64,000 nt of DNA from Nostoc sp. 'Peltigera membranacea cyanobiont' 210A (GTDB taxonomy: Bacteria > Cyanobacteriota > Cyanobacteriia > Cyanobacteriales > Nostocaceae): positions 1 through 64,000 of the forward strand of contig NZ_NOLJ01000017.1 of NCBI RefSeq assembly GCF_002246015.1, given 5' to 3'. The notes beneath the pieces are model-generated. The model did no database searches. It saw nothing but the letters and a program-made list of their open reading frames with translations, and was not told the origin of the DNA. The translations under genes and the position numbers were made by a program. Numbering within the stretch: position 1 is the first letter of the stretch; each line of letters begins with the position of its first letter. This document shows, one piece after another, positions 8,203 through 30,013 of the stretch.

Positions 8203-8250
8203 TGGTGTTATCTGTAATAAGCATTTGCCAATGGCAGAGGCATTAGCCTC

Positions 8251-8907: not shown

Positions 8908-8995
8908 GGTTGGGAGAATATAACATCTCTCCCATGCAGCGGTAAGCTGCAAATTAATTATACGTACAGCCAAGATACAAGAACTAGCTGTCATT

Positions 8996-9170
8996 TCCAA
9001 TTCGCAATTCGCAATTAATAATACCCCACGCATGAATGCGTTCCGTTGAATATTGATACTACGTGTTTTGTTTCTTTTCATAATTGAAATTAGGGGCTTG
9101 TATCCCAACGGCTTAATTATCAATTACGTCCGCAATTGCGAATTGCGAACTGCGAATTGCGAATTGTTCG
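8996..9170. repeat. MITE-like inverted-repeat element with AATTCGC termini
   Basis: Iterated AATTCGC units at about 8997-9020 (CCAATTCGCAATTCGCAATT) are mirrored by iterated AATTGCG units at about 9132-9168. The two arms enclose about 110 bp that contains no gene. This looks like a small non-autonomous repeat of the kind found in Nostoc intergenic DNA. It has created an artificial upstream extension of the neighbouring open frame. Similar termini flank another element at 57497-57644. Confidence 0.6.
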
Positions 9171-9180
9171 GTCAATACAA

Positions 9181-9519
9181 TCAATCCTCTACTTCCGGCT
9201 CACCAATTGTCTTCTGTGCGCCATGACGAATATGGAGAATTCTCACCGTTGGAACAGGCTGATCTTCAAGAACCGTAAATAGAATACGATAGGTTTGTTT
9301 TCCTTGCCCGTAAAGAAGCTGACGAATTTCTTGACTAAAGAAGGCATCCTCTCGAGCGATTGGACAGCGCCGAGGCATTTCTTGCAGAGAGACGATTGCT
9401 TTAATCAGCCCTTGATACCAGAGTTGGGCGCGTTCATCTGTGGTAAACTGAGAAAAACTTAAGAATGCAGCATCCGCTTCGGCTTTCGCAATGCTAGAGA
9501 AATCAATGCGGTACGTCAT
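9181..9519 (-). CDS. RelE/ParE-family toxin
   Basis: A 112-aa toxin-like protein. Features typical of the fold are visible: a helix pair (SIAKAEADAAFLSF ... ERAQLWYQGLIKAI), then MPRRCPIARED, then beta strands ending in YRILFTV and VRILHIRHGAQ. RelE members cleave ribosome-bound mRNA, while ParE members target gyrase. The RHGA-type C-terminal strand with a conserved arginine and histidine fits either. The start overlaps the antitoxin stop by four bases (ATGA). Such pairs stabilise plasmids. Confidence 0.85.
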   Translation of the reverse strand: MTYRIDFSSIAKAEADAAFLSFSQFTTDERAQLWYQGLIKAIVSLQEMPRRCPIAREDAFFSQEIRQLLYGQGKQTYRILFTVLEDQPVPTVRILHIRHGAQKTIGEPEVED

Positions 9520-9770
9520 GCTTCAAGAGACAATCCATATTTCTGATTTTGTTCAGCAATGAAGTCCTCTAAACTCGAAAACTGTCCTTGCTCAAAATCA
9601 TCAAGCCCACGTTGGATTCCCTTTAAAGCCTCAAAAAAATCTTGATCGTCCAAACTCAGTCCTAAAGTCAGCACCGCTAGCGCCATTTGCGAAATATCTT
9701 GTCCAGTACTTTCAGCACGCTGTCGCAGCAGTGCCTCAACTTTCGGTGGCAGATCAAGTGTAATGGACAT
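9516..9770 (-). CDS. Antitoxin of the RelE/ParE pair
   Basis: I place the start at ATG 9770, giving 84 aa beginning MSITLDLPPKVEALLRQRAE. A longer frame to 9869 reads unlike protein and crosses the promoter. The N-terminus (SITLDLPPKVEALLRQRA, then DISQMALAVLT) has the strand-helix-helix shape of ribbon-helix-helix or plasmid-stability antitoxins, and the acidic C-terminus (DDFEQGQFSSLEDFIAEQ) would wrap the toxin. It precedes the toxin with a four-base overlap, the usual order. The RHH part probably autorepresses the operon. Confidence 0.8.
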   Translation of the reverse strand: MSITLDLPPKVEALLRQRAESTGQDISQMALAVLTLGLSLDDQDFFEALKGIQRGLDDFEQGQFSSLEDFIAEQNQKYGLSLEA

Positions 9771-9800
9771 TGTGAGTTTTCCGAGCGTGATACTGGTTTT

Positions 9801-9806
9801 ATTATA
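9801..9806 (-). promoter_or_regulatory. -10 box of the toxin-antitoxin operon
   Basis: A perfect TATAAT on the minus strand, about 31 bp upstream of the antitoxin ATG at 9770. No consensus -35 box is visible at the expected distance, which fits an activator-independent cyanobacterial type 2 promoter. Its position inside the longer version of the reading frame supports the shorter start. Confidence 0.5.
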
Positions 9807-9929
9807 GCGATGCCTGCTCTGGGCTATTCGGTGTCGCACCTCATAGATTGGGTAAAGCGGACTGCTCAAGTATCGATTTAATCGGGCGATCGCAGACTTG
9901 GAGGCAGTGATAGAGTATCTGGGACATTG

Positions 9930-9986
9930 ACACTCTCTTGACTGCGAAACTAACGCAAGCGCTCGGTTTCACAGTCAGGAGAGTGT
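9930..9986 (-). terminator. Long hairpin at the 3' end of the helicase gene
   Basis: A 21-bp stem (9930-9950 with 9966-9986) has only two non-Watson-Crick positions, both G-T, and a 15-nt loop. It touches the stop codon of the helicase gene. There is no T-run after it on the minus strand, so it may act as a Rho-independent-like barrier, an mRNA 3' stabiliser, or be a small palindromic repeat. Confidence 0.55.
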
Positions 9987-12574: not shown

Positions 12575-12742
12575 AGTCGTAGTCTTCGCTCACTGCCCTA
12601 AAAAATCCCCCACTGGGGGAGTGATACTAAATTAGGATAATTAGTACGGAATTTGCGGTAAAAAATTGCGGTTAACACAATATCAACTAGTTAATTACCA
12701 TCTAAAATAGGAAAACTAAAATTACACACGCAAATATTATAA

Positions 12743-13843
12743 ATGAGTCAACAAATAACTAAAAATCAACACTATATACCTCAGTTTCTTCTCAATCACT
12801 TTGGTTATGATGTCAAGAAAATAAAAAAGATTAACATATTTGATATGACTAGAGGTACTGTGAGATACAACCAAGCAGTGAAGGAAGTGTTTTCACAAAA
12901 TTACTTCTATGACAAAGATAATTCAGTTGAAAACTTACTTTGTAATCATATTGAAGCTCCTGTTGCTGTAGTTATAAATAAAATTGTCAATGGGCAATTT
13001 AGCATATCAAAAGAAGATACCCCGACACTACTCAGGTTTATTTCAGTCCTTTTATTCCGTACACCTGAAGCAAGAAAAAAAACACTTTCATTTATCGACT
13101 CTTTCTTTAATTCAGTATTTGAAAAATTGTTAAGCTTAAACGGTTATGACACAAATGATCCGGGTAAAGTATTGATAGATGCAAGTAATCTAGTTTCTCT
13201 GATAACTATACAAGGAATAATTGACGCTGGATTTTTGGTGGATCTGGATTTTCACATAATCCAAAATAACACTACATCCGAGTTTTGTATATCAGATCAT
13301 CCTGCTTTTATGTATAACTGGTTTTATAAAGATTTAGATCATCCAGCTATAACTAGCTTGACTGCACGAGGCTTACAAATTTTCCTGCCATTATCGCCAA
13401 AATTATTAATTTGCTTATATGATCCAGAGGTCTACAAATATGGCAATAAGAATTCAGCTATAACCACTATTAATAGTGCAGATGATATTACGATACTTAA
13501 CTCATTTCAGATTATGAGTGCAGAATCAATAATAGGTTTTCGTGAAAAAAATAGTGAGGCTGGTTTAAAAGAGCTTTATAGAAAATATAAAAATGTAAAA
13601 ATATATGAGCACGAAAGTTATATAGTAGAAGAAAAACATATTGAAAATGGAGAGCTTAAAACCATTCATCTTACACTTACCAAACAAACTAAACTTTCAA
13701 AGATGCCTTCATTTGTGAAAATAAAGAAAAAATCTAAAAATGATACTTTTAATTTTTGTGAAAGAAACCCTACTCTTTCTGCCCTTCACCAAAATTATAG
13801 AGAGCAGGTTTTAAAGGAGAAAAGAAACGTTGTTAATTTATAA
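12743..13843 (+). CDS. DUF4238 family protein
   Basis: A 366-aa protein with the family hallmark near the N-terminus, NQHYIPQFLLNHF, followed by VFSQNYFYDKDNSVEN and EFCISDHPAF. DUF4238 proteins are widespread in bacteria, often as isolated accessory genes. Their activity is not established to my knowledge. The lysine-rich C-terminus (VKIKKKSKND) may bind nucleic acid. The coding sequence is more AT-rich than its neighbours, which suggests recent acquisition. It is transcribed divergently from the helicase across a 168-bp AT-rich gap. Confidence 0.8.
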   Translation: MSQQITKNQHYIPQFLLNHFGYDVKKIKKINIFDMTRGTVRYNQAVKEVFSQNYFYDKDNSVENLLCNHIEAPVAVVINKIVNGQFSISKEDTPTLLRFISVLLFRTPEARKKTLSFIDSFFNSVFEKLLSLNGYDTNDPGKVLIDASNLVSLITIQGIIDAGFLVDLDFHIIQNNTTSEFCISDHPAFMYNWFYKDLDHPAITSLTARGLQIFLPLSPKLLICLYDPEVYKYGNKNSAITTINSADDITILNSFQIMSAESIIGFREKNSEAGLKELYRKYKNVKIYEHESYIVEEKHIENGELKTIHLTLTKQTKLSKMPSFVKIKKKSKNDTFNFCERNPTLSALHQNYREQVLKEKRNVVNL

Positions 13844-14060
13844 AATAAGTTAGCAATTTGTGGGTTGAATCTATCACTAATCGTTCCTTAACCGAGATGT
13901 ATCGGGATTTTAATACTTAGATAAATAAGTCTCAAATAAGCATGGTTGTTTCAGTTTAAATACTGTAAATATTTAGGACAAAGATTGTGTTATAAACATC
14001 TTAAGCAAATTCTAATTTTGTTACTACCAATTAAAATTGAGTATTAAATGCGACTACAGC

Positions 14061-14300
14061 ATGAGATGAAACGACGTTTACTATAATTGCAGTGCTTACA
14101 GCCATCATGGTATCGACTGTGGTGATGGTACGGTCATCCACTACACGAACAGTCAGAGAAACATCTCCCGTGTTTCTCGGGCTTACTTCACATCTGGAAT
14201 AACAGTATTGGTAAAAGAGTATGGTCAGTGCGACACACCAGATATTATCATTTGGCATCTTGAAAGCAGATTAGGAGAAAAGGAATCTAATCGCCCTTAA
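14061..14300 (+). pseudogene. Remnant of an LRAT-domain (NlpC/P60-like) gene
   Basis: The frame reads M-R-stop-NDVYYNCSAYSHHGIDCGDG and continues with TVIHYTNSQRNISRVSRAYF, then VLVKEYGQCDTPD and AESRLGE-like residues. This matches LRAT-domain proteins common in cyanobacteria, in which HHGI.CGDG.VIHY holds the catalytic histidine. Codon 3 is TGA where a glycine codon (GGA) would be expected, and the frame ends before the catalytic NCEHF cysteine segment. It is therefore a dead 5' fragment. Confidence 0.65.
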
Positions 14301-14344
14301 CCAAGGGTATGCAATACTTACTGGTAATAAGGATTCAAACAAGT

Positions 14345-14577
14345 ATGACAGTATTTCAAACCACATTTGAACTTCCTAACTGGATATTACAAGGCTTAGA
14401 CAATGGAGAATATATAAGAATTGGCGGCGTTTTGAAGCTTATCTACTAGAAGTGCAACTTATCCAACAACATGGGATGAGTTTTCAAGACTGGCTTGAAT
14501 TAGCCTCTCATACAAAAGCTCAACAGCATGAGTTACAAACTATATATATTATTCCCTTACAACCACTTAATCTATAG
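14345..14577 (+). pseudogene. Decayed small ORF(s), conserved-hypothetical remnant
   Basis: From ATG 14345 a 34-aa frame reads MTVFQTTFELPNWILQGLDN, then GEYIRIGG, resembling the start of small cyanobacterial proteins of unknown function that begin with an FETTFELP-like stretch. It stops at 14449. A second frame (14422-14577) reads WRRFEAYLLEVQLIQQHG, then MSFQDWLELASHT. The break between the two frames suggests either a frameshift or a junction of two decayed genes. Confidence 0.4.
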
Positions 14578-14757
14578 CGATGTAACTATTTTTATATGGA
14601 TATAAAGTTTGCCTACTGCTAGGCATTCCTAATGAAGTTGCGGATAAGGACTTTAATTACGTATTTGGCGGCACAGATGTAAGAGGCTGAGGCTTTGGAT
14701 TTAGAGATTAAAATAGAGTTAGCAAAGGTAGGGTTTACTTGATTAGGAGATTCTCTT

Positions 14758-14982
14758 ATGAATTTACAAGAAATTATTAATTCTATTGAAAGTTTACCCA
14801 CAGAAGAACGGGACTATTTGTTTGAGTTTCTCCGTAAAAAAAAGGAGGAATCAAGAGGGGATAATTTTTGGGAAGGATTACAAAAATTTAGAAAAGTAAT
14901 CCAAAGCGAGGGAATTATCTTTAATGATGATGATTTCGCTGACTTACGAGATCGCAGTGTGGGAAGAGAAATTGATCTATGA
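14758..14982 (+). CDS. VapB-like antitoxin (orphan)
   Basis: A 74-aa helical, charged protein (IINSIESLPTEERDYLFEFL, then RKKKEES) of the type that precedes PIN-domain toxins in cyanobacteria. Its stop codon TGA overlaps an ATG (ATGA, 14979-14982) that begins MSLKYLLDT, the typical start of a VapC toxin. The toxin is destroyed after ten codons, so the antitoxin appears to be an orphan. A purine-rich GGAGATT stands 7-10 bases before its ATG. Confidence 0.6.
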   Translation: MNLQEIINSIESLPTEERDYLFEFLRKKKEESRGDNFWEGLQKFRKVIQSEGIIFNDDDFADLRDRSVGREIDL

Positions 14983-15058
14983 GCTTGAAATACTTACTTG
15001 ATACCACGTGAAATTTATGTTAGATACTAATATAATTATTAGTGAATTTGGATTTTAG
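14979..15058 (+). pseudogene. VapC (PIN-domain toxin) 5' remnant
   Basis: ATG at 14979 gives MSLKYLLDTT then TGA. A second frame from 15017 gives MLDTNIIISEFGF then TAG. Both halves match the conserved PIN start (LLDTN.I.SE, with the catalytic first aspartate). It looks as if the first strand was locally duplicated or reshuffled and the remaining 120 or so residues were lost. Confidence 0.6.
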
Positions 15059-15113
15059 ACTGAAATCAAATATACAATCCAAAATCCAAAACTCTCAGTC
15101 AACTTTATGTTGA

Positions 15114-16097
15114 TTAAGTTAACTTAAATAACCTGCTAACACTAAGAATTATTAACAGTAAATCCTTACTTGACGCTCGATGACTCGCTACCGCTCCGCT
15201 ATCAGTACCCCTCTTAATAGACATCTCCAAATCCAGCATCATAGTTACTGCCTTAGTTAAAGCATTAATGCTTGTATTTGCTACCTCCTGACGCAAATAG
15301 TAAATGCGATTAGGATTACTGATACTGCACAGTTGAGCTAATTCACTATCTTTCTTAATCCCAGAAACGATCGCAGACTTAACCCACAGCCAAGTTCTAA
15401 ACTGGGTTAGGAGAGTAGCAATAATCACCATTAATGGTTCCGATCGTGACAGTAAATCATCTAGCAGGTGCAAAACTTGATTACTTTCTCCTTGGCGAAT
15501 AGCAGATGCCAGTTGTAGGCTATTCTGAGTTTGACATGGCACTAACTCTTTTACTTCTGCAAGTTCAAGTTGTCTGCCAATACTATAGATATACAGTTTG
15601 CGTAACTCTGTCGCTGCACGGGTCATGTCGTTACCAATTGCTTCTGCTAGATATTCCACCGCATTCTTTGACAATACCAGCTTGATTTTTTTAGCCTGAG
15701 TACTGATCGCTTTCTCAATTAAATCAGTACGCCAAGGTGGTATCAATGGAAACTCAAACAACTTGGCATACTTAGCAAGATGTTTGTAAATCTTCAGCCG
15801 CTTATCTACATTGGTGGCGACAAACACCAAAATTGTGAATTCAGGCACTTGAACAAGCTGCTGCAAAGTTTCTAACTCAGTATCACCCCACTGCTTGAGG
15901 TGGCAATTTTCCACAATCACCAGTTTTTTACCACCAGTCAGGGAACGAGTGCGAGCTACGCTGATAGCTTGGTCAAGGCGATCGGCTGGAAATCGGTGAT
16001 AGCAAAGTGTGAGCCATTGAGCATCAATCTCTGCTTTGTATTGATTTAGCTGTTCCTGGATGGCGTGTTGGTCGTCACCTGTCAGCAAGACAATCAT
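15114..16097 (-). CDS. holA: DNA polymerase III delta subunit (clamp loader)
   Basis: A 327-aa protein with the HolA layout: N-terminal MIVLLTGDDQHAIQEQLNQY (start GDD-like strand), GGKKLVIVENCHLKQ, FTILVFVATNVDKRLKIYK, a lid region with EAIGNDMTRAATELRKL (conserved GNDM...EL.KL), and a C-terminal helical collar (SEPLMVIIATLLTQFRTWL). Delta opens the beta clamp during loading. The start overlaps the dnaX stop by four bases, so the two loader subunits are co-translated. The C-terminal segment (TDSGAVASHRAS) could carry a small repeat-derived stretch. The sequence is probably divergent from the chromosomal copy. Confidence 0.88.
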   Translation of the reverse strand: MIVLLTGDDQHAIQEQLNQYKAEIDAQWLTLCYHRFPADRLDQAISVARTRSLTGGKKLVIVENCHLKQWGDTELETLQQLVQVPEFTILVFVATNVDKRLKIYKHLAKYAKLFEFPLIPPWRTDLIEKAISTQAKKIKLVLSKNAVEYLAEAIGNDMTRAATELRKLYIYSIGRQLELAEVKELVPCQTQNSLQLASAIRQGESNQVLHLLDDLLSRSEPLMVIIATLLTQFRTWLWVKSAIVSGIKKDSELAQLCSISNPNRIYYLRQEVANTSINALTKAVTMMLDLEMSIKRGTDSGAVASHRASSKDLLLIILSVSRLFKLT

Positions 16098-17590
16098 GCT
16101 TTTACCCTCCCATTACTGCTCTTGTTGGCAGTTTTAATTAACACAGTCATTGGTTGTTGACTTTGGATAGCTCGTTGCAGCATTTTAGCGATCGCCTCTT
16201 TACTACTTTCAAACTTATTCAAGTAAGCTGGTGTAACCTCTAAAATTGCCTTGTCACCTTGCAATTTAACAAGATTTGCATGAGCCAACAGCTTTTGATT
16301 GCTGGGTTTAGCTGTATCTATCACAGAAAGCCAAATTTGAGCCAGGTTAGTAGTCTGGGCTGCAACTGCTGGTAACAATTTGTCATCTACAGGTTTAGCT
16401 GTCACCTTGTTTGTAGTGTATACTCCAACTGTTGGTAGCAACTTGCCGTCATGGACAGGTTTAGCAGTTAGCGTCTTGGTTGCACTGACAGGCAATAAAC
16501 TGGGTATCAGGTTCAGTAAGCAAACTTCTAGCCACACAGCAGCATTTACTGTGTACCGCAGATAGTTTTCTGCTTTTTGTAACTCTGCTAGAGACAAGTT
16601 AAGCGTCTCGAAATTCCAGTGATTTGCTAAAACCTTGAGTTGAGCATAGCTAACACAACCAGTCAGCAGGGATTGCTCTTTGGGTGCAGACTTGATAATC
16701 AGTAAATCTCGGTATGTTTGCAGTAAGTTAGAGAGAATCAATTTGGGCGTTTTACCAGAATCTACTAAAACTCTTGCTACTTGCAGCAAGTTAAAGGTGT
16801 TGTTGGTGGATATTGCCTGTAAAATTGACATTAATTCTGTTTCTGTCACACCACCAGCGATTTCCATGACATGATTAGCAGTGATATCTTCATCTAAAAG
16901 ACTCACCTGACCCAGTAATTGCAGTGCATCCCGCAATCCACCATCGCTGAGTTTTGCGATCGCTGTCAGTGCCTCCTCATCAATAGAAATAGATTCTGCA
17001 TCTGCTACAATACCGAGGTGCTGCACAATTGCCTGAACAGACAAAGTGCGGAAATTAAACACCTGACAACGGCTGACAATGGTAGGTAACACCTTGTGCA
17101 GTTCTGTTGTGCAGAGAATGAAAACAACATGAGGTGGCGGTTCTTCAATACACTTGAGTAAAGCATTGAAGGCGTTACCGGTTAGACAATGGCACTCATC
17201 GAGAATAAAAATTCGGTAACGTCCTGCAACAGGTGCTAAGGTACTCCGCTCAATTAAAGCACGGGCATCATCTACACCATTATTAGAAGCAGCATCAATT
17301 TCACTGACATCTAGGCTATTACTGGTTTCAATTGAACGGCAGGATTGACAAATACCACAAGGTTGGTCAGTTGGTTTTTTAGTGTTGAGGCAATTGAGGG
17401 ATTTAGCAAATATCCGAGCAGTTGAGGTTTTACCTGTGCCTCTAGAACCTGTAAACAAATAAGCTGGTGCAATTTGCAGGTATTTGACAGCATTAGTCAG
17501 AGCAGTTTTGATGTAGGGCTGTCCAACTAATTCGGCTATTGTCTGGGGTCTATATTTTTGATGTAGGGCGACTGTAGACATAGGATTCAT
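16094..17590 (-). CDS. dnaX: DNA polymerase III gamma/tau subunit (clamp loader ATPase)
   Basis: A 498-aa clamp-loader ATPase. The N-terminus is LHQKYRPQTIAELVGQPYIK, Walker A GSRGTGKTS lies near residue 50, four zinc-binding cysteines follow (LNCLN...CGICQSC), Walker B is FILDECHC, and the sensor/arginine-finger motif is IVSRCQVF. Domain III follows, then a short low-complexity linker with repeated TAKPV.D.KLLP units (about 375-410) and a compact C-terminal domain. That tail is shorter than in full tau proteins. It forms an operon with holA. No delta-prime or DNA polymerase gene is in the window. Confidence 0.92.
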   Translation of the reverse strand: MNPMSTVALHQKYRPQTIAELVGQPYIKTALTNAVKYLQIAPAYLFTGSRGTGKTSTARIFAKSLNCLNTKKPTDQPCGICQSCRSIETSNSLDVSEIDAASNNGVDDARALIERSTLAPVAGRYRIFILDECHCLTGNAFNALLKCIEEPPPHVVFILCTTELHKVLPTIVSRCQVFNFRTLSVQAIVQHLGIVADAESISIDEEALTAIAKLSDGGLRDALQLLGQVSLLDEDITANHVMEIAGGVTETELMSILQAISTNNTFNLLQVARVLVDSGKTPKLILSNLLQTYRDLLIIKSAPKEQSLLTGCVSYAQLKVLANHWNFETLNLSLAELQKAENYLRYTVNAAVWLEVCLLNLIPSLLPVSATKTLTAKPVHDGKLLPTVGVYTTNKVTAKPVDDKLLPAVAAQTTNLAQIWLSVIDTAKPSNQKLLAHANLVKLQGDKAILEVTPAYLNKFESSKEAIAKMLQRAIQSQQPMTVLIKTANKSSNGRVKA

Positions 17591-21217: not shown

Positions 21218-22834
21218 CTAATTAGTACGGAACCTAGAAGTACGAAGACCTTTCTTAGACACCTGCACAGGACTGGAAGCTGGTCGCGCAATCTTTGACC
21301 AAGACTGCATCCGCTCAACAGCAGCAGCATCTTGAACCGCTAAAGGGGTGATGTTTAGCTGGCAATTTTCTAAATCAGCCAGTGTGACCTGCTGAGGTCT
21401 TCCTTCATCGAAAGCCAGTAGTGCTGCTTCTGATGCCAGGGTTTCCAACTCAGCACCACTAAATTTGTCAGTAGCAGCAGCGATCGCCTCTAAATATTCC
21501 TGTGGAACTTCTATACCAAACCGTTCTAAGTGAATCTTGAGAATCTGGCAACGTTCCAACTCAGTAGGCAGGTCAACGAAGAAATTTTCATCAAACCGCC
21601 CTTTCCGCTTAAACTCAATAGGCAGCGCTGTTGGGTCATTACAGGTTGCCACCACAAACACCCCCGCCGTACATTCAGACATGAAAGTGAGGATATTTCC
21701 CAGAATCCTTTGTGAGACTCCAGAGGTATCGCCATTAGCTGAAAGTGCTTTCTCGACTTCATCAATCCACAAAATACAGGGTGCGATCGCTTCAGCAGTC
21801 TTGAGTGCGCGGCGGACATTGCCCTCAGATTCTCCCACCAGGCTACCAAGCATCGAGGCAATGTCTAATTGCAGCAGTGGAAGATTGAGTATGGTTGCAA
21901 TGTTCTTTGCTACTATCGATTTACCCGTCCCTGGTGGCCCTGCTAGTAACACACCTTTAGGTTGGGGTAGATTTAGCGATCGCGCTTCTTGGGAAAATAA
22001 CCGGCTGCGGCGTTGCAACCAATCCCGCAATAAATCCAAACCACCAAAGGGTATGGTCGCTGATTTACCCAATTCGATACCCATTTGAGCGAGTAGGCGG
22101 GTTTTGTATTCGACAACCAAAGGGATGACCGTAGTATCAATTACTATACCTTTAGAAGTTAATCGCTCTTTAACAGTCAGCCGCAGAAAGTCGCTAATTT
22201 CCTCCAGCGTCAAGCCTAAAGCTGCCCTTGCCAAGGTTTCTTTATCTTCAGTGGTGAGAGATACGGTAAAAGTTACCTCTTGCTCACTGGCAGATTCTTG
22301 CAAGTATAGTAAATATGATTCTAAGTGGTCTTGAATTTGCTCAATGCTGGGCAAAGGAACTTCACAGCAAGGAATTAGTCTCAGCAGGGATTCGTGCAGT
22401 TGAATGTTTTGACCTAAAAATACAATTCGCTTTTCAGTCGGTTTGAGGCGATGGTACAAATTTTTTACTCTGGTGAGGATTTCCCAACTCAATTGCAGGG
22501 AGTTTCTACCCACAAAAGGGTGAACATCTCCCAGGATAAAAACTCCATTACTACCAAAATTATTGATGTACTCGAACACATATATTAAAGGGTCTATGTT
22601 ATGAGGCTTTTTATACGTCTCGACTGATTTGAATACCAGTCCACCGTCGTCAGCAATCAGACATTGCTCCAAGCCGGAAACTCCCAAATTCCAGAAGTAT
22701 ACAGGACTGTTAAGTTTGTCCATCACTTCAGTAGTTAACCACTGAATGATAGTGGCTTCTTCGGGGGACAGAACATCTATTGCCACGATGGGTATTTGAG
22801 AGTCAATGGTGGTAATCAGGTTTGATAGTTTCAT
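21218..22834 (-). CDS. ycf46: Ycf46-like AAA+ ATPase
   Basis: A 538-aa protein of the Ycf46 family, found in cyanobacteria and some plastids. The N-terminal domain (about 1-190) is family-specific (IYVFEYINNFGSNGVFILGD, LKPTEKRIVFLGQNI). The AAA+ core has GVLLAGPPGTGKSIVAKNI (Walker A 299-306), ILWIDEVEKAL, sensor ATCNDPTALP and the KRKGRFDENFFVDLPT arginine finger. The family has been linked to photosynthesis/CO2 regulation, but its biochemical role is unclear. The start overlaps the preceding small gene by four bases, so it is translationally coupled to the DUF1257-DUF2997 operon. Confidence 0.88.
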   Translation of the reverse strand: MKLSNLITTIDSQIPIVAIDVLSPEEATIIQWLTTEVMDKLNSPVYFWNLGVSGLEQCLIADDGGLVFKSVETYKKPHNIDPLIYVFEYINNFGSNGVFILGDVHPFVGRNSLQLSWEILTRVKNLYHRLKPTEKRIVFLGQNIQLHESLLRLIPCCEVPLPSIEQIQDHLESYLLYLQESASEQEVTFTVSLTTEDKETLARAALGLTLEEISDFLRLTVKERLTSKGIVIDTTVIPLVVEYKTRLLAQMGIELGKSATIPFGGLDLLRDWLQRRSRLFSQEARSLNLPQPKGVLLAGPPGTGKSIVAKNIATILNLPLLQLDIASMLGSLVGESEGNVRRALKTAEAIAPCILWIDEVEKALSANGDTSGVSQRILGNILTFMSECTAGVFVVATCNDPTALPIEFKRKGRFDENFFVDLPTELERCQILKIHLERFGIEVPQEYLEAIAAATDKFSGAELETLASEAALLAFDEGRPQQVTLADLENCQLNITPLAVQDAAAVERMQSWSKIARPASSPVQVSKKGLRTSRFRTN

Positions 22835-23088
22835 TGTTGCGAATTTTGATCGGGTACGGGAGAAAGTTTTTCGTGAGTGGTAACAAGATGCACGACTACT
22901 TCGTAAACTTCGGCATCGCCGTTAAACACTTCAGCAACTCCAGAAGAATTTGGATGAGCAATGGCGGAAATTAGGGCATTGACTAAAGCGCACAGTCCCC
23001 CGGCATTTCCTTTGATAATTACTGGTTCCCGCGCTCCTTTTGAGGGATAAATATGGAGCATCGGATAATCTTCAGGTAGTTCACTCAT
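22831..23088 (-). CDS. Small protein of the Ycf46 operon
   Basis: An 85-aa protein (MSELPEDYPMLHIYPSKGAR, then EPVIIKGNAGGLCALVNALI) not assigned to a named family. It is soluble with a glycine-rich turn and a helix with small residues (LCALVNALISAIAH). It overlaps the ycf46 start by four bases and lies 45 bp after DUF2997, so it is expected to be co-expressed with them. It may be a subunit or regulator of the ATPase. Confidence 0.7.
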   Translation of the reverse strand: MSELPEDYPMLHIYPSKGAREPVIIKGNAGGLCALVNALISAIAHPNSSGVAEVFNGDAEVYEVVVHLVTTHEKLSPVPDQNSQQ

Positions 23089-23343: not shown

Positions 23344-23790
23344 TTATCTCCGAACTTGTTGAGTTTGCTGGTGTGCTGAAAATGCAAGACGCAGGGTATG
23401 TACCTGACCGTTGGTTTCTTCTGTGATGGTGCATTCTCCCAGATGTTCTTGTAACTGGGCTGCTTTAGCGCGAACCATCTTCTGTCCGTAGGCTTGTATT
23501 AGGGTGTGCGAAAAGAAGTCTTCTCCTAGTCGGGGTACAGTTTCATAGGCATCATGGATGAGTTGATACACCCCTGCCTCCTGATCCCACTTAAACCCGA
23601 TATCTGCGCGGACACTTAAACTACGGCCAGGGACAACAATCTCAGCAATTTGTCCTTGGGAGTCGTCGTAATAACCTCTCAGGGATTGTGGTTTTTCATA
23701 AACTTGAACGGTAAGCTGCAAATCTTGTAGAGCTTGTACTAAACATTCACGGTTAGTTAGTTTTGTAGTGACAGTTGAAAAATGTGACAT
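23344..23790 (-). CDS. ycf35: DUF1257 / Ycf35 family protein
   Basis: A 148-aa protein starting MSHFSTVTTKLTNRECLVQA, the family signature, followed by LRGYYDDSQGQIAEIVVPG and ADIGFKWDQEAGVYQLIHDA. Ycf35 is encoded in red-algal plastids and cyanobacteria. Its function is not established. This is the first gene of a tight operon with DUF2997, the 85-aa gene and ycf46. Chromosomal copies of this set are normal in cyanobacteria, so a second set on a mobile element is notable. Confidence 0.88.
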   Translation of the reverse strand: MSHFSTVTTKLTNRECLVQALQDLQLTVQVYEKPQSLRGYYDDSQGQIAEIVVPGRSLSVRADIGFKWDQEAGVYQLIHDAYETVPRLGEDFFSHTLIQAYGQKMVRAKAAQLQEHLGECTITEETNGQVHTLRLAFSAHQQTQQVRR

Positions 23791-24032: not shown

Positions 24033-25109
24033 CTAACGAAGTTTGAGAGACATCGCTGTAGCTCTGGTTAATCCCATGCCTTCATCACTTGCTAATCGTT
24101 GAAGATGGCGTTGTTCATCCAGAAGCTTGGAGCAAATTTCATCCATTTTTTCCTGTAACTGAGAACGCCCTTGTGAATCCAGCTTTTTGGCATCCACAGA
24201 AGCGTTTTCGAGAACATTTTCTAGATGAGCCATCATTTGTCCAAGGCTGCTACCTGCTTCAAAACTGGCGTTAGCCAAAAGCATTTGGACTTTTTTGAAA
24301 TGGCGTTCCATCTTCTTCTTGAAGTTGACTGGCTTGCGTCCTGGTTCCCAATTGCTCAAATCTTCGAGCAACTGGGCTGCTAGTTGCTCACCTCCTGCGA
24401 TCGCTGATTCTCTCAGTGTTTGTTCTAAATTTCTGTCATACTGTTCGATAAACCGAGTTATTTGCCCTAAGCATTCAGCTTGTTTCTCTGACAATTGTTC
24501 ACTGATAGCGGGAATAATGACAGGACGACCAATTACGACTTGTAAATAGTCCTCTAGTTCCTCTAAACAGGGAAAAGCTTTGGCTAAGTTCTGCTTAACT
24601 TCTTGTTGTTGTTCTACAGATAACTGCCAAGCATTGAGTGAGAGAAATTTGTCAATACGTTCTTGATAGTCGGTGTACCCCTTTTCATACTCTTCTTTCA
24701 GTTGAGTGCGTAAAACAGGTGCAATATTATCTCGAATTCCGATTAGTTGATTCCAGACCAAGGGCGCTAAGTCTATAGAACAAATCCAATCACCATTGTC
24801 ATAATTCATCCATTCTTGGACTGAAGCAATTTCTTGCCTTAATTGGTTTGCTGCTTCGTCTAAAGCTTTGAAAACTTTGATGCCCTTTAAACCAACTTCT
24901 GAGGTTGTAACCTTCACTAAGTCAGATTCTTGTTCATCTTGAGAATATTTGAGAACATCTGTCCATTTGGGAGCATTACTCTTGGTTGTCTTCTTTAACT
25001 GAATCTTGAAACGGATGCGAGTTTTATTCAACTTAGAGATGTTATATCTTTCAACAACAGCGTCTTTTAGAAAGGTTTTGCTTGAATTGGTAATCACTGA
25101 TTGTACCAC
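24033..25109 (-). CDS. Unrecognised helical 358-aa protein
   Basis: Soluble and almost wholly helical with several long charged helices (QEVKQNLAKAFPCLEELEDY; GGEQLAAQLLEDLSNWEPGR; DEQRHLQRLASDEG). The N-terminal third has a strand-rich segment around KTRIRFKIQLKK. It is loosely similar in style to DUF3150-type plasmid and phage proteins that sit beside AAA+ ATPases, but I cannot confirm this. A Ycf46-like ATPase remnant lies upstream on the opposite strand and an intact one downstream, so partnership with such an ATPase is possible. Confidence 0.65.
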   Translation of the reverse strand: MVQSVITNSSKTFLKDAVVERYNISKLNKTRIRFKIQLKKTTKSNAPKWTDVLKYSQDEQESDLVKVTTSEVGLKGIKVFKALDEAANQLRQEIASVQEWMNYDNGDWICSIDLAPLVWNQLIGIRDNIAPVLRTQLKEEYEKGYTDYQERIDKFLSLNAWQLSVEQQQEVKQNLAKAFPCLEELEDYLQVVIGRPVIIPAISEQLSEKQAECLGQITRFIEQYDRNLEQTLRESAIAGGEQLAAQLLEDLSNWEPGRKPVNFKKKMERHFKKVQMLLANASFEAGSSLGQMMAHLENVLENASVDAKKLDSQGRSQLQEKMDEICSKLLDEQRHLQRLASDEGMGLTRATAMSLKLR

Positions 25110-25204: not shown

Positions 25205-25535
25205 ACTTTGAGTTTGCCGCAACGGCAAGGTTAATGTTGAAGGTGTCCTCCTAGTGGGAATTCAAGGAACTGGGAAATCCTTGTCTGCGAAAACTATTGC
25301 CCATGAGTGGCGTTTACCTCTGTTGCGATTGGATGTGAGACGGTTATTTGGGGGAATTAATTGTCGGTGAAAGCGAAAGTCGTATCCGCCAAATGATTCA
25401 ACTATCAGAGGCGATCGCTCCCTCCCTGTGTTTTGTGGATGGATGAAGTAGATAAAGCCTTTGCGAACATTAGCAGTGGATTTGATGGAGACTCTGGGAC
25501 ATCGAGGCGGGTGTTTGGAACGTTAATCACCTTTT
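25205..25535 (+). pseudogene. Decayed Ycf46-like AAA+ ATPase fragment
   Basis: Read across at least three frame changes the DNA encodes [89 protein letters not shown] and TSRRVFGTLITF. This follows the Walker A to post-Walker B core of Ycf46-type ATPases. Single-base shifts occur near 25352 (GGGGGAATTAATTG) and 25437 (GTGGATGGATGAAG). Both ends of the gene are missing. Confidence 0.72.
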
Positions 25536-25761
25536 TCTTGCCAAGTTTTTGCACCATTATTCCGCTACAAGGTCAAGATTACAGGATTTCCACTCTTCTC
25601 TAGTAAGTTTTTCCACGCTAGGATATTCGCGAACCACTCCGCCTTTTCCACATCCCGTGAAAAGTCAGAGGAGTAGACAGACCCCAAGACAGCAGATAGA
25701 CTTGCAGTTTAAAGCTAAAAAACAATTGATTTTGTGAAAAATGTTGTAGAGGGGTAAGCTT

Positions 25762-26088
25762 GTGAAGCGTATCGTAGAATTTCCTTTAGAAAGCGAAAGC
25801 GGCGATTTCATTCTTGTGGAGGTGGATGAGCCTGGGCCAACTGATGATCGTATTGGTTTGCGAGATGAGATGATTCAAACAGCTAAAAAAACTTTTGAGT
25901 CTGCTCTGGAACAAGTTAAGCCCATAGCCAATGCCATTATGACTAAAGTAAATAGTCTCAATCAGCCTGCGGACGAAGTAGAAGTCAAGTTTGGCATCAA
26001 AATGAGTGCAGAACTTGGAGCAGTCATCGCTTCTGGCAATGGCGAAGTTAATTATGAAGTTACTTTAAAGTGGAAGCGGGAGCCATAA
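25762..26088 (+). CDS. Trypco1 / CU044_2847-family small protein
   Basis: A 108-aa protein with the trypsin-co-occurring domain: an N-terminal strand (MKRIVEFPLESESGDFILVE), a central helix (KTFESALEQVKPIANAIMTK) and C-terminal FGIKMSAELGAVIASGNGEV. Members are encoded next to trypsin-like proteases or NTPases in predicted conflict systems. Start is GTG 25762, with AGAGGGG seven or so bases upstream. Only one base separates its stop from the next ATG, so the two genes are one translational unit. Its likely job is to regulate, or be cleaved by, the partner protease. That is inference. Confidence 0.82.
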   Translation: MKRIVEFPLESESGDFILVEVDEPGPTDDRIGLRDEMIQTAKKTFESALEQVKPIANAIMTKVNSLNQPADEVEVKFGIKMSAELGAVIASGNGEVNYEVTLKWKREP

Positions 26089-26089
26089 G

Positions 26090-29000
26090 ATGCCCACACC
26101 CCTAGAGTCATCAGTTGTCAGGATTTACTCAAAATATGACAAGGTTGTTGGTGCTGGCTTTTTAGTTTCCGAAAAATATATCCTGACATGCGCCCATGTG
26201 GTAGCAGATGCTCTAGGAATTGCCAGAAACACTGTTGAAATGCCTAATGCAGAAATCCACTTGGATTTTCCTTTATTAGCGGCGCAACAACTGTTCACAG
26301 CCAAGATAGTATTTTGGCGACCTGTTAATCCTAATGAGTTTGCTGAAGATATTGCGGCATTGGAATTAGAAAGCTCTCCTCCTAATACTGCTCAACCAGC
26401 ACCATTAGTAGCTTCAGAAAACTTATGGGGGCATCCTTTCCGAGTTTTGGGTTTTCCAAAGAACCAGCCCAATGGAGTTTGGGCTGCTGGTAAAATTAGA
26501 GCCGGACTTGCCAATGGTTGGGTGCAAGTCGAGGGTACAAAACAACAAGGTTACGCATTAGAGCCTGGTTTCAGTGGTGCGCCAATATGGGATGAGCAGC
26601 TACAGGGTGTAGCAGGAATGGCAGTAGCGGCGGAAATGGAGCGAGCGACAGCCAAAGCGGCGTTTATTATTCCTACTCAAGTGCTGATTACAGCATGGTT
26701 AGAGTTGAGCGAGCAAGTTCCTGTAACGACACCAGGCATTGACATTAAAAAATGCAAACAAGATTGGGGACTAGCACAAAATATTTATAGTTTCTATGGA
26801 CGTACTGAGGAAATCTCCACTTTAAAACACTGGATCATTGAAGAAGAGAAACCATGTCAATTAGTCTTGTTGCTGGGCATAGGTGGGATCGGAAAAACGA
26901 GCTTATCATTGAAGCTAGCACGAGATATTCAAGATGAGTTTGAATATGTCTTTTGGCGTTCATTATTGAATGCTCCATTAAGTTCAGATATCTTTTCAGA
27001 TTTAATCAATTTTATATCCGATCAGAAGAAAACTGGTTTATCAGACACTGTAGATGAACAAATAACTCAGTTGATTACTTATTTGCAGCAGCATCGTTGC
27101 TTGCTAATACTTGACAATTTAGATGCAGTCCTAGACAGCAGTAATCAATCCCGGTTTCAAGAGGGGTATGAAGGTTATGGGAAGTTTTTATCAAAAGTCG
27201 GTGAAGTTACCCATAAGAGTTGCTTGCTGTTGACTAGCCGTGAAAAACCTCCGGAAGTTGTGAAGTTGGAAAGAGGAGAAAAAGGACTAACTCGCACGTA
27301 TAGTTTAAGTGGCTTGAACTATTCAGACAGTCAGGAAATATTCATTGGCATCGGTTCCTTTGCTGGTTCAAACGAAGAATGGAAGGAAATAATTGAGTTT
27401 TATAGCGGCAATCCTTTGGCTCTAGAGCTTGCTGCCAAGCATATTACCGAAGTATATTCGGGCGACATTTCTGATTTTTTGAAACAAGGAAAACAGGTAT
27501 TTGGTGAAGTAAATGATTTATTAGATTGGCATTTTCAACGTTTATCAGACAAAGAGCAAGAGATAATGTACTGGTTAGCAATCAACCGTGAGCCAGTTTC
27601 ACTTTCAGAGCTAATAGAAGATATTTTTGCATCCAAAAGCGTCAAAGATGAAATTCCTTCAATTCTACAAGTCTTACAGCGAAGATTTCCTCTCGTGAAA
27701 AGTCAAAAGCATTTTTCATTGCAGCCTGTGCTTATTGAGTATTTAAGCGCTCGCTTAGTTAAATGTGTATATAAAGAGATTAATGAAGAAGAAACAATAT
27801 TACTATTAAATAGGCATGCACTCATTAAAGCATCTACAAAAGATTATGTCAGGGAAGCTCAAATTCGCTTTATTATTAAGCCTATTGTCGAGGAATTTTT
27901 TTATAATGATGATAAAAAATTTGAAGATCAGCTATTTAAATTAGTATCAAAATTGAAAAGGGAAGAACTGCCTCAGCGAGGTTATTTGGGTGGAAATATT
28001 CTTAATTTACTTTGTCATATAGGTACTGATTTGAGCGGCCGTGATTTTTCATGCCTAAAACTTTGGCAGGTATATTTGTCAGACGCAAATTTGAAAGACG
28101 TAAACTTAGCTCATTCCGACTTATCTAAATCCTCTTTCGCAGAAACCTTTAGTAGTATCTTAGCAATAGCTTTTAGTCCAGATGGAGTATCGCTTGCCAC
28201 TACTGACCCCAACGAAATCCACTTGTGGAGAATTTCTGACGGTCAAAACTTAATGACCTATAAAGGACATGTAGGCTGGATCTGGAGTGTCGCTTTCAGT
28301 TCAGATGGAAAGATTTTAGCTAGTGGAGGTGAGGATTGTACAATAAAGCTATGGGATGTCAATAATGGTCAACTCCTCAGAACGTTACAAGAGCACAAAG
28401 ATTTCGTTCGCTTTCTTACCTTCAGTCCAGATGAAAAGATTTTAGCAAGCAGTAGCGACGATCTGACAATAAAGTTATGGAATACTAACACTGGTGAATG
28501 TTTGAACACAATTCAAGCCCATGCTGATTGGATTTGGTGTGTCGTGTTCAGCCCAGATGGTCAAACTCTTGCTACTGGCAGTGATGATCAAATGGTAAAG
28601 CTGTGGGATGTTAAAACTGGTCGTTGCATAATAACTCTTCAAGAACACAGTGATTTTGTACGGTCAGTAGCATTTAGTCCTGATGGGTCTAAGCTTATTA
28701 GTGGTAGTGGAGATAAAACAATTAGATTATGGGACATTAAAACTGGTGAATGTTTAAAAGTATTTGAGGGGCACAGTGGCTCTGTCTGGCGTGTTGCCTT
28801 TAGCCCGGATGGTCAAATTATTGCTAGTGGAAGTGATGATAAAACAGTGAAGTTATGGGATATTAACACTGGAGATTGCACCAAAACACTACAAGGATAC
28901 AAAGGGAGAGTTGGTTCTGTTGCCTTTAGTCCCCCCGATGGTCAAACTCTTGCTACTGGCAGTGATGACCAAACGGTAAAACTTTGGGATGTTAAGACTG

Positions 29001-30013
29001 GTCAATGCTGGAAAACGCTAAAGGGATCTACTCATTGGATATATTCAGTTGCATGTAGCTCCAATGCTGGTATGTTAGCTAGTAGTGGAGAAGATAGACT
29101 TGTCAGGCTATGGAACGTTGAAACTGGTGAATGTATCAAAATCTTTACAGGGCATACAAATCGAGTTTGGTCTGTTGCATTTAGCCCTCGTAATGATGTT
29201 CTAGCTAGCAGTGGTAGTGAAGATAAAACAGTGAAGTTATGGGATATTGCAACTGAGCGTTGTCTGAAAACATTCCAGGGGCATAAGGATTGGGTTTGGT
29301 CTGTCGCGTTTAGTCCAGATGGTCAAACTCTTGCAAGTGCTAGTGACGACAAAACAGTCAAACTATGGGACGTTAATACTGGTCAATGCATCAGAACTTT
29401 TGAAGGACATACCAACTGCTTGGCTTCAGTAGACTTTAGCCCTAATGGCAAGCTCATTGCTAGTGGCGGTGGAGATCAAGTCGTGAGGCTTTGGAATATC
29501 AACGAAGGAAAGTGTTGCGGAATTTTGGAAGGACATACTAGTCTAATTTGGTCTGTTAGATTTAGCCCTAATAATCAAATGGTTGCTAGTGGTAGTCAAG
29601 ACCAAACTATAAAGCTATGGAACATTGAAACGCAACAGTGTATTAGAACATTGAAGGAGCACTCTAATTGGGTATGTGCAGTTGCATTCAGTCCAGATAA
29701 TACAACTTTTGCCAGTGGTAGTGAAGACCAGACAGTAAAAATATGGAATATTGAAACTGGTCAATGCATTAAGACTTTTGAAGGACATACTGGCCGAGTT
29801 TGGTCTGTCATATTCAGTCCAGATGCGAAGACTTTATTTAGTGGTAGTCAAGATGGAACAATTAGAGTCTGGGATATTAATCAAAGTGAATGTATAAGAA
29901 CACTAAGGGTTAGCCGACCTTATGAAAGAATGAATATAACAGGAATTACTGGCTTAACAGAGGCACAGAAAGGAACACTAAAAATTTTAGGGGCAGTAGA
30001 GGATGAAAAATGA
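26090..30013 (+). CDS. Trypsin-like protease / NB-ARC NTPase / WD40 fusion
   Basis: A 1307-aa three-part protein. Residues 1-200 are a trypsin-fold peptidase with an apparent complete triad: H36 (LTCAHVV), D87 (EDIAALEL) and S162 (PGFSGAPI). Residues 225-600 are a STAND/NB-ARC NTPase with Walker A GIGGIGKT (263-270), CLLILDNLDAVL and GNPLALELAAKH. A short pentapeptide-like linker (LSGRDFSCLKLWQVYLSDAN) follows. The C-terminus has 14 WD40 repeats, enough for two seven-bladed propellers. Such proteins are expected to sense a ligand with the propellers, oligomerise through NTP and switch on the protease. It is partnered with the Trypco1 gene. The role in immunity or regulated death is inference. 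Confidence 0.88.
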   Translation: MPTPLESSVVRIYSKYDKVVGAGFLVSEKYILTCAHVVADALGIARNTVEMPNAEIHLDFPLLAAQQLFTAKIVFWRPVNPNEFAEDIAALELESSPPNTAQPAPLVASENLWGHPFRVLGFPKNQPNGVWAAGKIRAGLANGWVQVEGTKQQGYALEPGFSGAPIWDEQLQGVAGMAVAAEMERATAKAAFIIPTQVLITAWLELSEQVPVTTPGIDIKKCKQDWGLAQNIYSFYGRTEEISTLKHWIIEEEKPCQLVLLLGIGGIGKTSLSLKLARDIQDEFEYVFWRSLLNAPLSSDIFSDLINFISDQKKTGLSDTVDEQITQLITYLQQHRCLLILDNLDAVLDSSNQSRFQEGYEGYGKFLSKVGEVTHKSCLLLTSREKPPEVVKLERGEKGLTRTYSLSGLNYSDSQEIFIGIGSFAGSNEEWKEIIEFYSGNPLALELAAKHITEVYSGDISDFLKQGKQVFGEVNDLLDWHFQRLSDKEQEIMYWLAINREPVSLSELIEDIFASKSVKDEIPSILQVLQRRFPLVKSQKHFSLQPVLIEYLSARLVKCVYKEINEEETILLLNRHALIKASTKDYVREAQIRFIIKPIVEEFFYNDDKKFEDQLFKLVSKLKREELPQRGYLGGNILNLLCHIGTDLSGRDFSCLKLWQVYLSDANLKDVNLAHSDLSKSSFAETFSSILAIAFSPDGVSLATTDPNEIHLWRISDGQNLMTYKGHVGWIWSVAFSSDGKILASGGEDCTIKLWDVNNGQLLRTLQEHKDFVRFLTFSPDEKILASSSDDLTIKLWNTNTGECLNTIQAHADWIWCVVFSPDGQTLATGSDDQMVKLWDVKTGRCIITLQEHSDFVRSVAFSPDGSKLISGSGDKTIRLWDIKTGECLKVFEGHSGSVWRVAFSPDGQIIASGSDDKTVKLWDINTGDCTKTLQGYKGRVGSVAFSPPDGQTLATGSDDQTVKLWDVKTGQCWKTLKGSTHWIYSVACSSNAGMLASSGEDRLVRLWNVETGECIKIFTGHTNRVWSVAFSPRNDVLASSGSEDKTVKLWDIATERCLKTFQGHKDWVWSVAFSPDGQTLASASDDKTVKLWDVNTGQCIRTFEGHTNCLASVDFSPNGKLIASGGGDQVVRLWNINEGKCCGILEGHTSLIWSVRFSPNNQMVASGSQDQTIKLWNIETQQCIRTLKEHSNWVCAVAFSPDNTTFASGSEDQTVKIWNIETGQCIKTFEGHTGRVWSVIFSPDAKTLFSGSQDGTIRVWDINQSECIRTLRVSRPYERMNITGITGLTEAQKGTLKILGAVEDEK

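What the first reader, a model, noticed from the sequence alone, without database searches (positions are those of the whole stretch)
25762..30013. Trypco1 plus trypsin-NB-ARC-WD40 conflict system
A one-base spacing joins a CU044_2847-type small protein to a 1307-residue protein with intact protease triad (H36, D87, S162), NTPase loop and 14 WD40 repeats. The design resembles STAND-type immune sensors whose effector is a protease. WD repeats show high mutual identity, a hallmark of fast diversification.
Basis: partly seen in the sequence, partly recalled or inferred. Interest (0 to 1): 0.65.

Follow-up and report, generated by a model that had tools for sequence, protein, structure and literature searches.

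The report
Swappable protease module on immune sensor
A cyanobacterium carries a two-gene unit in which a small partner protein sits just ahead of a protease that is fused to an immune-type switch and sensor; relatives carry the same protease unit joined to quite different sensors, and the small partner has a conserved spot where such proteases are known to cut.

Summary
The anatomy is confirmed: a Trypco1 gene (25762-26088), one spacer base, then a 1307-residue trypsin/HtrA-NB-ARC-14xWD40 protein (26090-30013) with H36, D87 and S162 invariant in 29 of 29 aligned relatives. High WD-repeat identity is not: mean 46.5%, rank 13 of 28 WD40 ORFs, against a published 85% criterion. Trypco1 plus trypsin behaves as an exchangeable module: joined to NB-ARC-WD40 here, elsewhere to TIR-AAA_35, nSTAND1 or VMAP, with the swap at about nt 26660-26720. 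I read it as a protease-tipped STAND sensor that works like AVAST type I (Avs1b), with Trypco1 in place of the upstream pro-nuclease. Trypco1 lies upstream of 80 of 88 related trypsin ORFs, 68 of them within 23 nt. At the site of window I31-G32 an aligned [IV][GAS] step occurs in 44 of 50 trypsin-paired Trypco1, then in 14 of 17 of a second set, against 5 of 13 there without a detected trypsin. A related defence trypsin (HamA) is reported to cut just after Ile, so I predict a cut at I31|G32; this is inference. A separate Trypco1 clade sits head-to-head with caspase genes; five scanned encode caspase-nSTAND1. New variant of a known kind.

The parts
25748..25754 (+). Shine-Dalgarno-like AGAGGGG ahead of the GTG start; homology with the G002 module begins at 25719
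   Evidence: sequence read; blastn boundary. That it is a ribosome site is inference
25762..26088 (+). Trypco1 (CU044_2847 family) gene, 108 aa; model is beta-beta-helix-beta-beta, low to moderate confidence
   Evidence: PF19493 93.2 bits, NF041216 84.8 bits; AF2 pLDDT 63, pTM 0.43
25852..25857 (+). codons I31-G32 at the end of the linker: predicted cut site of the partner protease
   Evidence: aligned [IV][GAS] in 44 of 50 trypsin-paired rows and 14 of 17 of a second set; cleavage itself is inference from PMC12799240. The closest relative, G025, has Phe-Gly here
26090..26704 (+). N-terminal trypsin/HtrA-like protease domain (aa 1-205); triad codons 26195-26197 (H36), 26348-26350 (D87), 26573-26575 (S162)
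   Evidence: Trypsin_2 58.3 bits; triad in 29 of 29; fold Z up to 21.6
26658..26720 (+). exchange junction between protease module and payload
   Evidence: best single breakpoint 26658 against G025; homology to the modules of G002 and G054 ends at 26720 and 26676
26753..28009 (+). STAND (NB-ARC) switch region, aa 222-640; P-loop 26876-26905, LLILDN 27101-27118
   Evidence: NB-ARC 42.0 bits; motifs; only two sequence matches among solved structures at E 0.01: plant NLRs NRC4 (E 1.1e-4) and RPP13-like protein 4 (E 0.0063; this is ZAR1, name recalled)
28058..28138 (+). short pentapeptide-repeat-like linker between STAND and propellers
   Evidence: Pentapeptide PF00805 19.8 bits, just under the cut-off of 20.2
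28109..29878 (+). 14 WD40 blades (probably two seven-bladed propellers), presumed ligand sensor
   Evidence: motif count and spacing, Pfam WD40 13 stretches; mean blade identity 46.5%

Best explanation
A bacterial NLR-like (STAND) sensor with a protease at its tip and a dedicated small partner. Proposed cycle: the two WD40 propellers bind a trigger (probably invader-made; unknown); the NB-ARC switch exchanges nucleotide and oligomerises; clustering activates the N-terminal HtrA-like protease; the protease cuts co-translated Trypco1 at the end of its linker, predicted I31|G32, removing the N-terminal beta hairpin and freeing the helix-hairpin part, which acts or signals towards cell death or dormancy. 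Trypco1 plus protease is one inherited module that is plugged onto different sensors, so one effector output is reused with many inputs. Shown here: domain anatomy, intact triad, tight gene coupling, module exchange, the conserved linker step. Inferred: oligomerisation, cleavage, toxicity, defence.
For: Anatomy and triad. Trypco1 upstream of 80 of 88 related trypsin ORFs, with 68 of the 80 gaps between -23 and +22 nt, and correlated divergence (Mantel r 0.87, 69 pairs, largest of 2000 permutations 0.18). Same module with TIR-AAA_35, nSTAND1, VMAP, NB-ARC-WD40 or an EAD9 tail. Separate histories: the window module is as close to the module of plasmid pNsp_e, which has another payload (93.0% nt), as to that of G025 (93.3%), yet window and G025 payloads differ at only 48 of 3306 sites against 63 of 982 in the module (Fisher 6e-15). 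The protease domain matches PADLOC models RT-Protease (29 of 29), LmuA (29 of 29) and Avs1b (21 of 29). PMC12799240 (passages, the abstract among them) reports that a trypsin fused to HamA cuts the upstream partner just after conserved Ile in disordered insertions, once HamA oligomerises, and that the AVAST protease cuts its partner next to Ile. Aligned [IV][GAS] at window I31-G32: 44 of 50 rows of the first set with a residue there; in the second set 14 of 17 trypsin-paired against 5 of 13 others. Step anywhere in the linker: 47 of 51 (composition shuffles 29.0; none of 5000 as high), second set 16 of 17 (9.0; none of 5000).
Against: No experiment, no trigger known, and no defence gene recognised among the five flanking ORFs scanned. 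The step was noticed after looking; shuffles ignore kinship. The closest relative, G025, with the same architecture, has Phe-Gly at the predicted site, and five other first-set rows and three second-set rows also miss. Counted anywhere in the linker, 11 of 12 second-set Trypco1 without a detected trypsin also have the step (shuffle mean 7.9). The step could be a structural helix cap or an inhibitor loop. Trypco1 has no known enzymatic or pore fold, its model is weak (pLDDT 63), and no fold match reaches E 0.001. In the trypsin domain dN/dS against G025 is near 0.8, compatible with relaxed as well as with adaptive change. In the nSTAND1 subset (n 17) trypsin also correlates with its payload (r 0.90 against 0.95 with Trypco1), so exchange is not constant.
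Confidence: 0.45

Rival explanations
1. Trypco1 is an inhibitor or chaperone-like antitoxin that holds the protease off; the linker [IV][GAS] step is a reactive-site loop lodged in the active site, and sensor activation displaces it. The protease acts on other cell proteins.
For: Co-translation upstream of the protease, in the order usual for an antitoxin (the usual order is recalled); the same linker step fits an inhibitor loop as well as a substrate; a small protein with no enzymatic signature.
Against: By analogy, the upstream partners of related defence proteases are substrates (PMC12799240). No inhibitor fold stood out among the Foldseek matches shown, though on a weak model.
Confidence: 0.25
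2. Trypco1 is a scaffold or adaptor that joins the protease to further components, as the literature labels it; no cleavage.
For: PMC10907252 calls Trypco1 an adapter domain (passages). In one cluster of 23 trypsin ORFs, 22 end in a tail of 76-80 residues instead of a large payload; it is EAD9 in the one scanned (L107), and L037 has an EAD9 protein next door.
Against: In the window the protease is already fused to its switch, so no adaptor is needed, yet Trypco1 is kept. The linker step is conserved in the window's phylum and in a mostly Streptomyces-family set.
Confidence: 0.2
3. The protein is a housekeeping or developmental STAND regulator (for example of differentiation or proteostasis), not a conflict system.
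For: NB-ARC matches are many in the own genome (22, with 150 of 196 candidates scored), and 54 of 59 genomes (own included) match the trypsin-STAND half, in the rows listed mostly by its STAND part, so the chassis is common in these genomes.
Against: The protease module is patchy (26 of 386 sampled genomes of the phylum at E 1e-15, own included), exchanged between payloads, and its close kin lies on a plasmid just after a recombinase gene, with a toxin-antitoxin pair about 2.5 kb further up.
Confidence: 0.1

Closest known systems
AVAST type I (Avs1a nuclease / Avs1b trypsin-STAND) and other nuclease-protease pairs (Hachiman HamM-HamA, Lamassu, DRT); PMC12799240, passages read, the abstract among them
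   Same: [quoted passage not shown] separate partner gene immediately upstream; pair moved between unrelated chassis; a parallel with caspases
   Different: upstream partner there is an MBL-fold pro-nuclease, here Trypco1; sensor here is NB-ARC-WD40; cleavage and defence not tested here; WD40 and Trypco are not mentioned in that text
VMAP (MoxR-vWA) ternary conflict systems, in which Trypco1 was named; PMC7159879, abstract, sections 22, 30, 31 and passages read
   Same: Trypco1 gene next to a trypsin-like peptidase
   Different: no VMAP, MoxR or vWA domain in the five flanking ORFs scanned or in the protein's first 690 residues; the protease is fused to NB-ARC-WD40
STAND sensors with N-terminal effectors (nSTAND1 and others) in PMC8195603, passages read
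   Same: central STAND NTPase whose N-terminal slot takes peptidases (trypsin or caspase) or EADs
   Different: the passage on nSTAND1 concerns systems centred on FGS (lectin-like) domains; Trypco1 is not mentioned in that text
Fungal HNWD/NWD receptors with highly conserved WD repeats; PMC4986451, passages read
   Same: NOD-like switch plus WD40 sensor
   Different: repeats about 85% identical there, 46.5% here; no sign of concerted repeat evolution here beyond one possible short tract
APAF-1 apoptosome (as described in PMC7159879)
   Same: AP-ATPase (NB-ARC) plus WD40 repeats leading to protease activation
   Different: protease fused in cis, and a serine rather than a cysteine protease

Membership tests
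Trypco1 (PF19493 / CU044_2847 family) | score over curated cut-off | tested here: met
   93.2 against 24.6 bits; 84.8 against 23
Trypco1 (PF19493 / CU044_2847 family) | gene neighbours a trypsin-like peptidase | tested here: met
   one base upstream of the trypsin ORF
STAND NTPase (NB-ARC/AP-ATPase) | NB-ARC profile and P-loop, repeat sensor C-terminal | tested here: met
   NB-ARC 42.0 bits; GIGGIGKT, LLILDN; WD40
STAND NTPase (NB-ARC/AP-ATPase) | NTP-driven oligomerisation | not testable with these tools
   needs biochemistry
VMAP/MoxR-vWA ternary system | VMAP-C, MoxR and vWA components in the locus | tested here: not met
   Pfam at E 0.1 on five flanking ORFs and the protein's parts 1-210, 211-410 and 411-690: none. 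Other ORFs of the window were not scanned. VMAP-C was found in the three trypsin proteins scanned from the VMAP-like cluster of relatives
AVAST type I / nuclease-protease pair | trypsin-like protease fused N-terminal to a STAND protein | tested here: met
   Avs1b model E 2e-4 on the window's protease domain
AVAST type I / nuclease-protease pair | MBL-fold nuclease gene immediately upstream | tested here: not met
   the upstream gene is Trypco1; the four ORFs scanned further upstream (24033-25109, 23344-23790, 22831-23088, 21218-22834) match no MBL profile
AVAST type I / nuclease-protease pair | anti-phage activity by cleavage of the partner | not testable with these tools
   predicted site I31|G32 only
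Hypervariable WD40 NLR (HNWD type) | WD repeats about 85% or more identical within the protein | tested here: not met
   mean 46.5%, maximum 71%
S1/HtrA-like serine protease | His-Asp-Ser triad and fold | tested here: met
   atom distances were not available

The most novel reading that the evidence does not exclude
Trypco1 is a new class of protease-gated pro-effector: a small protein cut in its linker by the protease tip of STAND sensors, with one clade matched to HtrA-like trypsins (cut after Ile/Val) and a separate clade, divergently encoded, matched to caspases (basic residue ahead of a small or acidic one), so that both prokaryotic protease-STAND families converge on the same output protein.
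Probability: 0.3. Interest if true: 0.82.

Novelty: new variant of a known kind. Interest (0 to 1): 0.55.

Why it matters
Trypco1 was named in 2020 for its co-occurrence with trypsin; my two searches for it listed two papers, and the passages I saw show no tested function. The work here gives it a testable role with a named residue pair, links it to the experimentally shown protease-activated defence logic of Hachiman and AVAST, shows the protease module moving between sensors, and reveals a caspase-paired clade. If right, one small output protein serves two families of bacterial immune proteases, a parallel to caspase cascades in animals.

Tried and rejected
WD40 hypervariability: rejected as above. 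Gene conversion between blades: the only hint is one cluster of 9 differences around blade 9, where the G025 allele matches blade 14 at 7 of 9 sites and the window allele at 0 of 9; picked after looking, not pursued. A joint trypsin-STAND alignment (A2) was misaligned (NB-ARC rows laid on the trypsin region) and not used for folding; so trypsin and Trypco1 were folded apart, and the STAND and WD40 parts were not folded. Trypco1 fold search: 128 matches at E up to 10, none at 0.001, several to beta-hairpin pore-formers at noise level on a weak model; not used. Pfam at E 0.01 named no N-terminal domain ahead of the NTPase in four NB-ARC-WD40 proteins of relatives and the own genome; they look HTH-like to me by eye, untested. 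PADLOC has no match for the window's Trypco1 at E 0.01. Of the 8 trypsin ORFs without Trypco1 upstream, some of them cut off by a locus end, I looked around two loci, L122 and L129, for a substitute partner and saw none that I could name; no profile was run on those ORFs.

Rows dropped before counts: L132-L159 (28 of 78 loci, weak trypsin matches) were left out. One search used 84 loci, a few of them the same place twice (for example L037 and L186). Of 88 trypsin ORFs, the 5 with under 60 residues of payload were left out of the clustering. One search used 106 loci; the Trypco1 of G025 in L043 was left out of it. One search used 100 of 108 domains (70 aa or more). One search used 51 and 13 non-redundant linkers (90% filter; linkers under 8 residues dropped, among them most of a short-linker subclade). 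One search used 30 non-redundant rows of 35. One search counted 50 of 56 first-set rows, those with a residue at the site.
Full report
WHAT IS THERE. The small ORF is Trypco1 (93.2 bits against a cut-off of 24.6; CU044_2847 family). The large one reads Trypsin_2 (58.3 bits), NB-ARC (42.0 bits), a short pentapeptide-like linker just below cut-off, then 14 WD40 blades. H36, D87 and S162 are present and invariant in the 29 sequences aligned. The AF2 model of the protease domain has pLDDT 86; VIA-align gives Z 21.6 to Deg9, 21.4 to Deg2 and 20-21 to AlgW, DegS, HtrA1 and the glutamyl endopeptidase Esp. Coordinates of the model were not available, so triad distances were not measured. Residue 156, six before S162, is Ala rather than the Asp that marks Arg/Lys-specific trypsins (that marker is recalled); the fold kin are HtrA-like.

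WD40 CLAIM. Blades were aligned with a profile made from the window's own blades and compared with the WD40 ORFs in loci then held (500 aa or more, at least 6 blades): the window's mean pairwise identity is 46.5% (maximum 71%), rank 13 of 28. Dyrka and colleagues define high internal conservation as 85% over at least 100 residues (PMC4986451, passages). High-identity arrays do exist nearby: two WD40 ORFs with caspase-like starts in the same genome have mean 81% and 77% (L039). Between the window and its closest relative, G025, propeller 1 differs at 3 of 852 nt, the NB-ARC core at 7 of 534, the rest of the STAND region at 11 of 720, propeller 2 at 23 of 897 and the trypsin domain at 38 of 615. 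So the protease, not the sensor, is the fast part, although the second propeller changes more than the switch.

A MODULE THAT MOVES. In G025 the same architecture lies in the same surroundings (three flanking blocks at 96-97% nt). Yet the Trypco1-trypsin stretch differs at 63 of 982 sites and the rest at 48 of 3306 (Fisher 6e-15), with the best single breakpoint at window nt 26658. In G002 homology to the window stops at 26720, in G054 at 26676. Beyond that G002 carries TIR-AAA_35, and G054 a payload 60-62% identical to two nSTAND1 proteins with a C-terminal part that looks like a propeller by eye. The window module is 93.0% identical to the one on plasmid pNsp_e of Nostoc sp. ATCC 53789, whose payload is annotated AAA-like and begins with a TIR-like stretch by eye, and 93.3% to that of G025, which shares the window's payload. 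So module and payload have separate histories. The TIR-AAA_35 payload in turn sits on a far-diverged trypsin in the window's own genome (80% payload identity, 23% in the protease; L040). Clustering of 83 payload-bearing trypsin ORFs gave 23 nSTAND1-like, 23 in a cluster where 22 have only a short tail, 21 VMAP-like, 3 TIR-AAA_35, 1 AAA_35, 2 NB-ARC-WD40 (window and G025), 2 from one locus of which the one scanned has SIR2, and 8 others. These classes rest on blastp clusters; Pfam was run on six of the first cluster, one of the second, three of the third and two of the TIR-AAA_35 group. An NB-ARC-WD40 protein also occurs with a caspase at its tip and an alpha/beta-hydrolase-like gene beside it (L051; the hydrolase hits are below cut-off), the pairing that PMC7159879 describes for caspases.

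TRYPCO1 AS THE PROTEASE'S PARTNER. Of 88 related trypsin ORFs, 80 have Trypco1 upstream, 68 of these with gaps of -23 to +22 nt; pairwise identities correlate (Mantel r 0.87, 69 pairs, largest of 2000 permutations 0.18). PMC12799240 (passages, the abstract among them) describes an equal layout: an MBL pro-nuclease gene upstream of a trypsin fused to a Hachiman, AVAST or Lamassu protein; the Hachiman protease cuts after conserved isoleucines in disordered insertions once it oligomerises; a caspase version (canu) exists. The window's protease domain and its relatives match PADLOC models LmuA and RT-Protease (29 of 29 each) and Avs1b (21 of 29). I therefore looked for an Ile/Val step in Trypco1. 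At the column of window I31, where the low-confidence linker meets the helix, 44 of 50 first-set trypsin-paired rows have Ile/Val followed by Gly/Ala/Ser. A second set, mostly from the family of a Streptomyces genome, has it in 14 of 17 trypsin-paired rows, and in 5 of 13 rows without a detected trypsin. Two of the 17 are not independent (L262, L295; both have the step), leaving 12 of 15. Counted anywhere in the linker the step is in 47 of 51 (shuffle mean 29.0, none of 5000 as high) and 16 of 17 (9.0, none of 5000), and R[IV][GAS] in 31 of 51 (2.7) and 8 of 17 (1.4).

AGAINST THIS. The pattern was found after looking; shuffles ignore kinship; trypsins more than about 1.5 kb away or unlike the profile would be missed in the second set. 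Anywhere in the linker, 11 of 12 second-set rows without a detected trypsin also have the step. G025, the only other protein with the window's architecture found here, has Phe-Gly at the site.

A CASPASE-PAIRED CLADE. Of 59 genomes searched, own included, 42 have Trypco1. Of 108 domains in 106 loci, 47 have a trypsin immediately downstream on the same strand; 50 lie near a caspase-like ORF on the opposite strand, 49 of them head-to-head at about 80-550 nt; 11 have neither. In a tree of 100 of them the 47 caspase-paired and the 47 trypsin-paired rows fall on two sides (1 change when the 'none' rows are left out; SH-aLRT 91, below the starred level; quick method, few columns). Five of five caspase partners scanned are caspase-nSTAND1. 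The window's genome has 7 caspase-family matches and 6 Trypco1; 2 of the 7 face a Trypco1, and the other 4 Trypco1 precede a trypsin. Linkers of 13 caspase-paired Trypco1 show no [IV][GAS] excess (7 of 13, shuffle mean 6.1) but more [KR]G than shuffles (6 of 13 against 1.9; 13 of 5000 as high). Basic P1 preference of prokaryotic caspases is recalled, not tested. PMC10907252 already notes Trypco1/2 and caspase-like genes near one another at some loci (passages). Searches listed two papers that name Trypco1, neither with a tested function in the passages I saw.

MECHANISM. Most likely: WD40 senses, NB-ARC clusters, the protease tip wakes and cuts Trypco1 at I31|G32. Shown: parts, coupling, exchange, conserved step. 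Inferred: everything that happens in the cell. Rivals: inhibitor loop, adaptor, non-defence regulator.

VERDICT. A member of the broad, published class of protease-bearing STAND conflict proteins, in a rare combination, with a swappable Trypco1-protease module; a new variant of a known kind. The interest lies mainly in the testable role for Trypco1.

Noticed in passing
L038, L039 and 47 further loci (own genome and relatives): Trypco1 genes beside caspase-like genes on the opposite strand, nearly all head-to-head, forming a clade separate from trypsin-paired Trypco1; the five caspase partners scanned carry nSTAND1.
   Followed up: partly
L039:7273-10461 and 12046-16209 (same genome, contig C23): Two WD40 ORFs with caspase-like starts on either side of a Trypco1, with 81% and 77% mean blade identity: candidates for repeat-driven diversification. 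The first is not among the genome's 7 caspase-family matches, so its caspase part may be decayed.
   Followed up: no
L295 (plasmid pNsp_e, Nostoc sp. ATCC 53789) 8001-10539: Near relative of the window's Trypco1-trypsin module on a plasmid, just after a recombinase gene, followed by an amidase gene.
   Followed up: partly
window 25423-25636: Stretch absent from G025; read by eye it holds a fragment of an AAA-ATPase-like gene on the + strand, perhaps a decayed copy related to the ORF at 21218-22834.
   Followed up: no
window 24033-25109, - strand: 358-aa ORF with a sub-threshold EAD1 match (19.2 against 24.2 bits, 30 residues); shorter in G025.
   Followed up: no
L051:4225-9728 (relative G052): Caspase-NB-ARC-WD40 protein with an alpha/beta-hydrolase-like gene directly upstream: a like chassis with the other protease.
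   Followed up: partly
L037:5089-12315 (same genome, contig C3): Trypco1, a trypsin whose tail clusters with that of L107 (EAD9), an EAD9 protein, a STAND-like NTPase and a radical SAM gene in a row.
   Followed up: no
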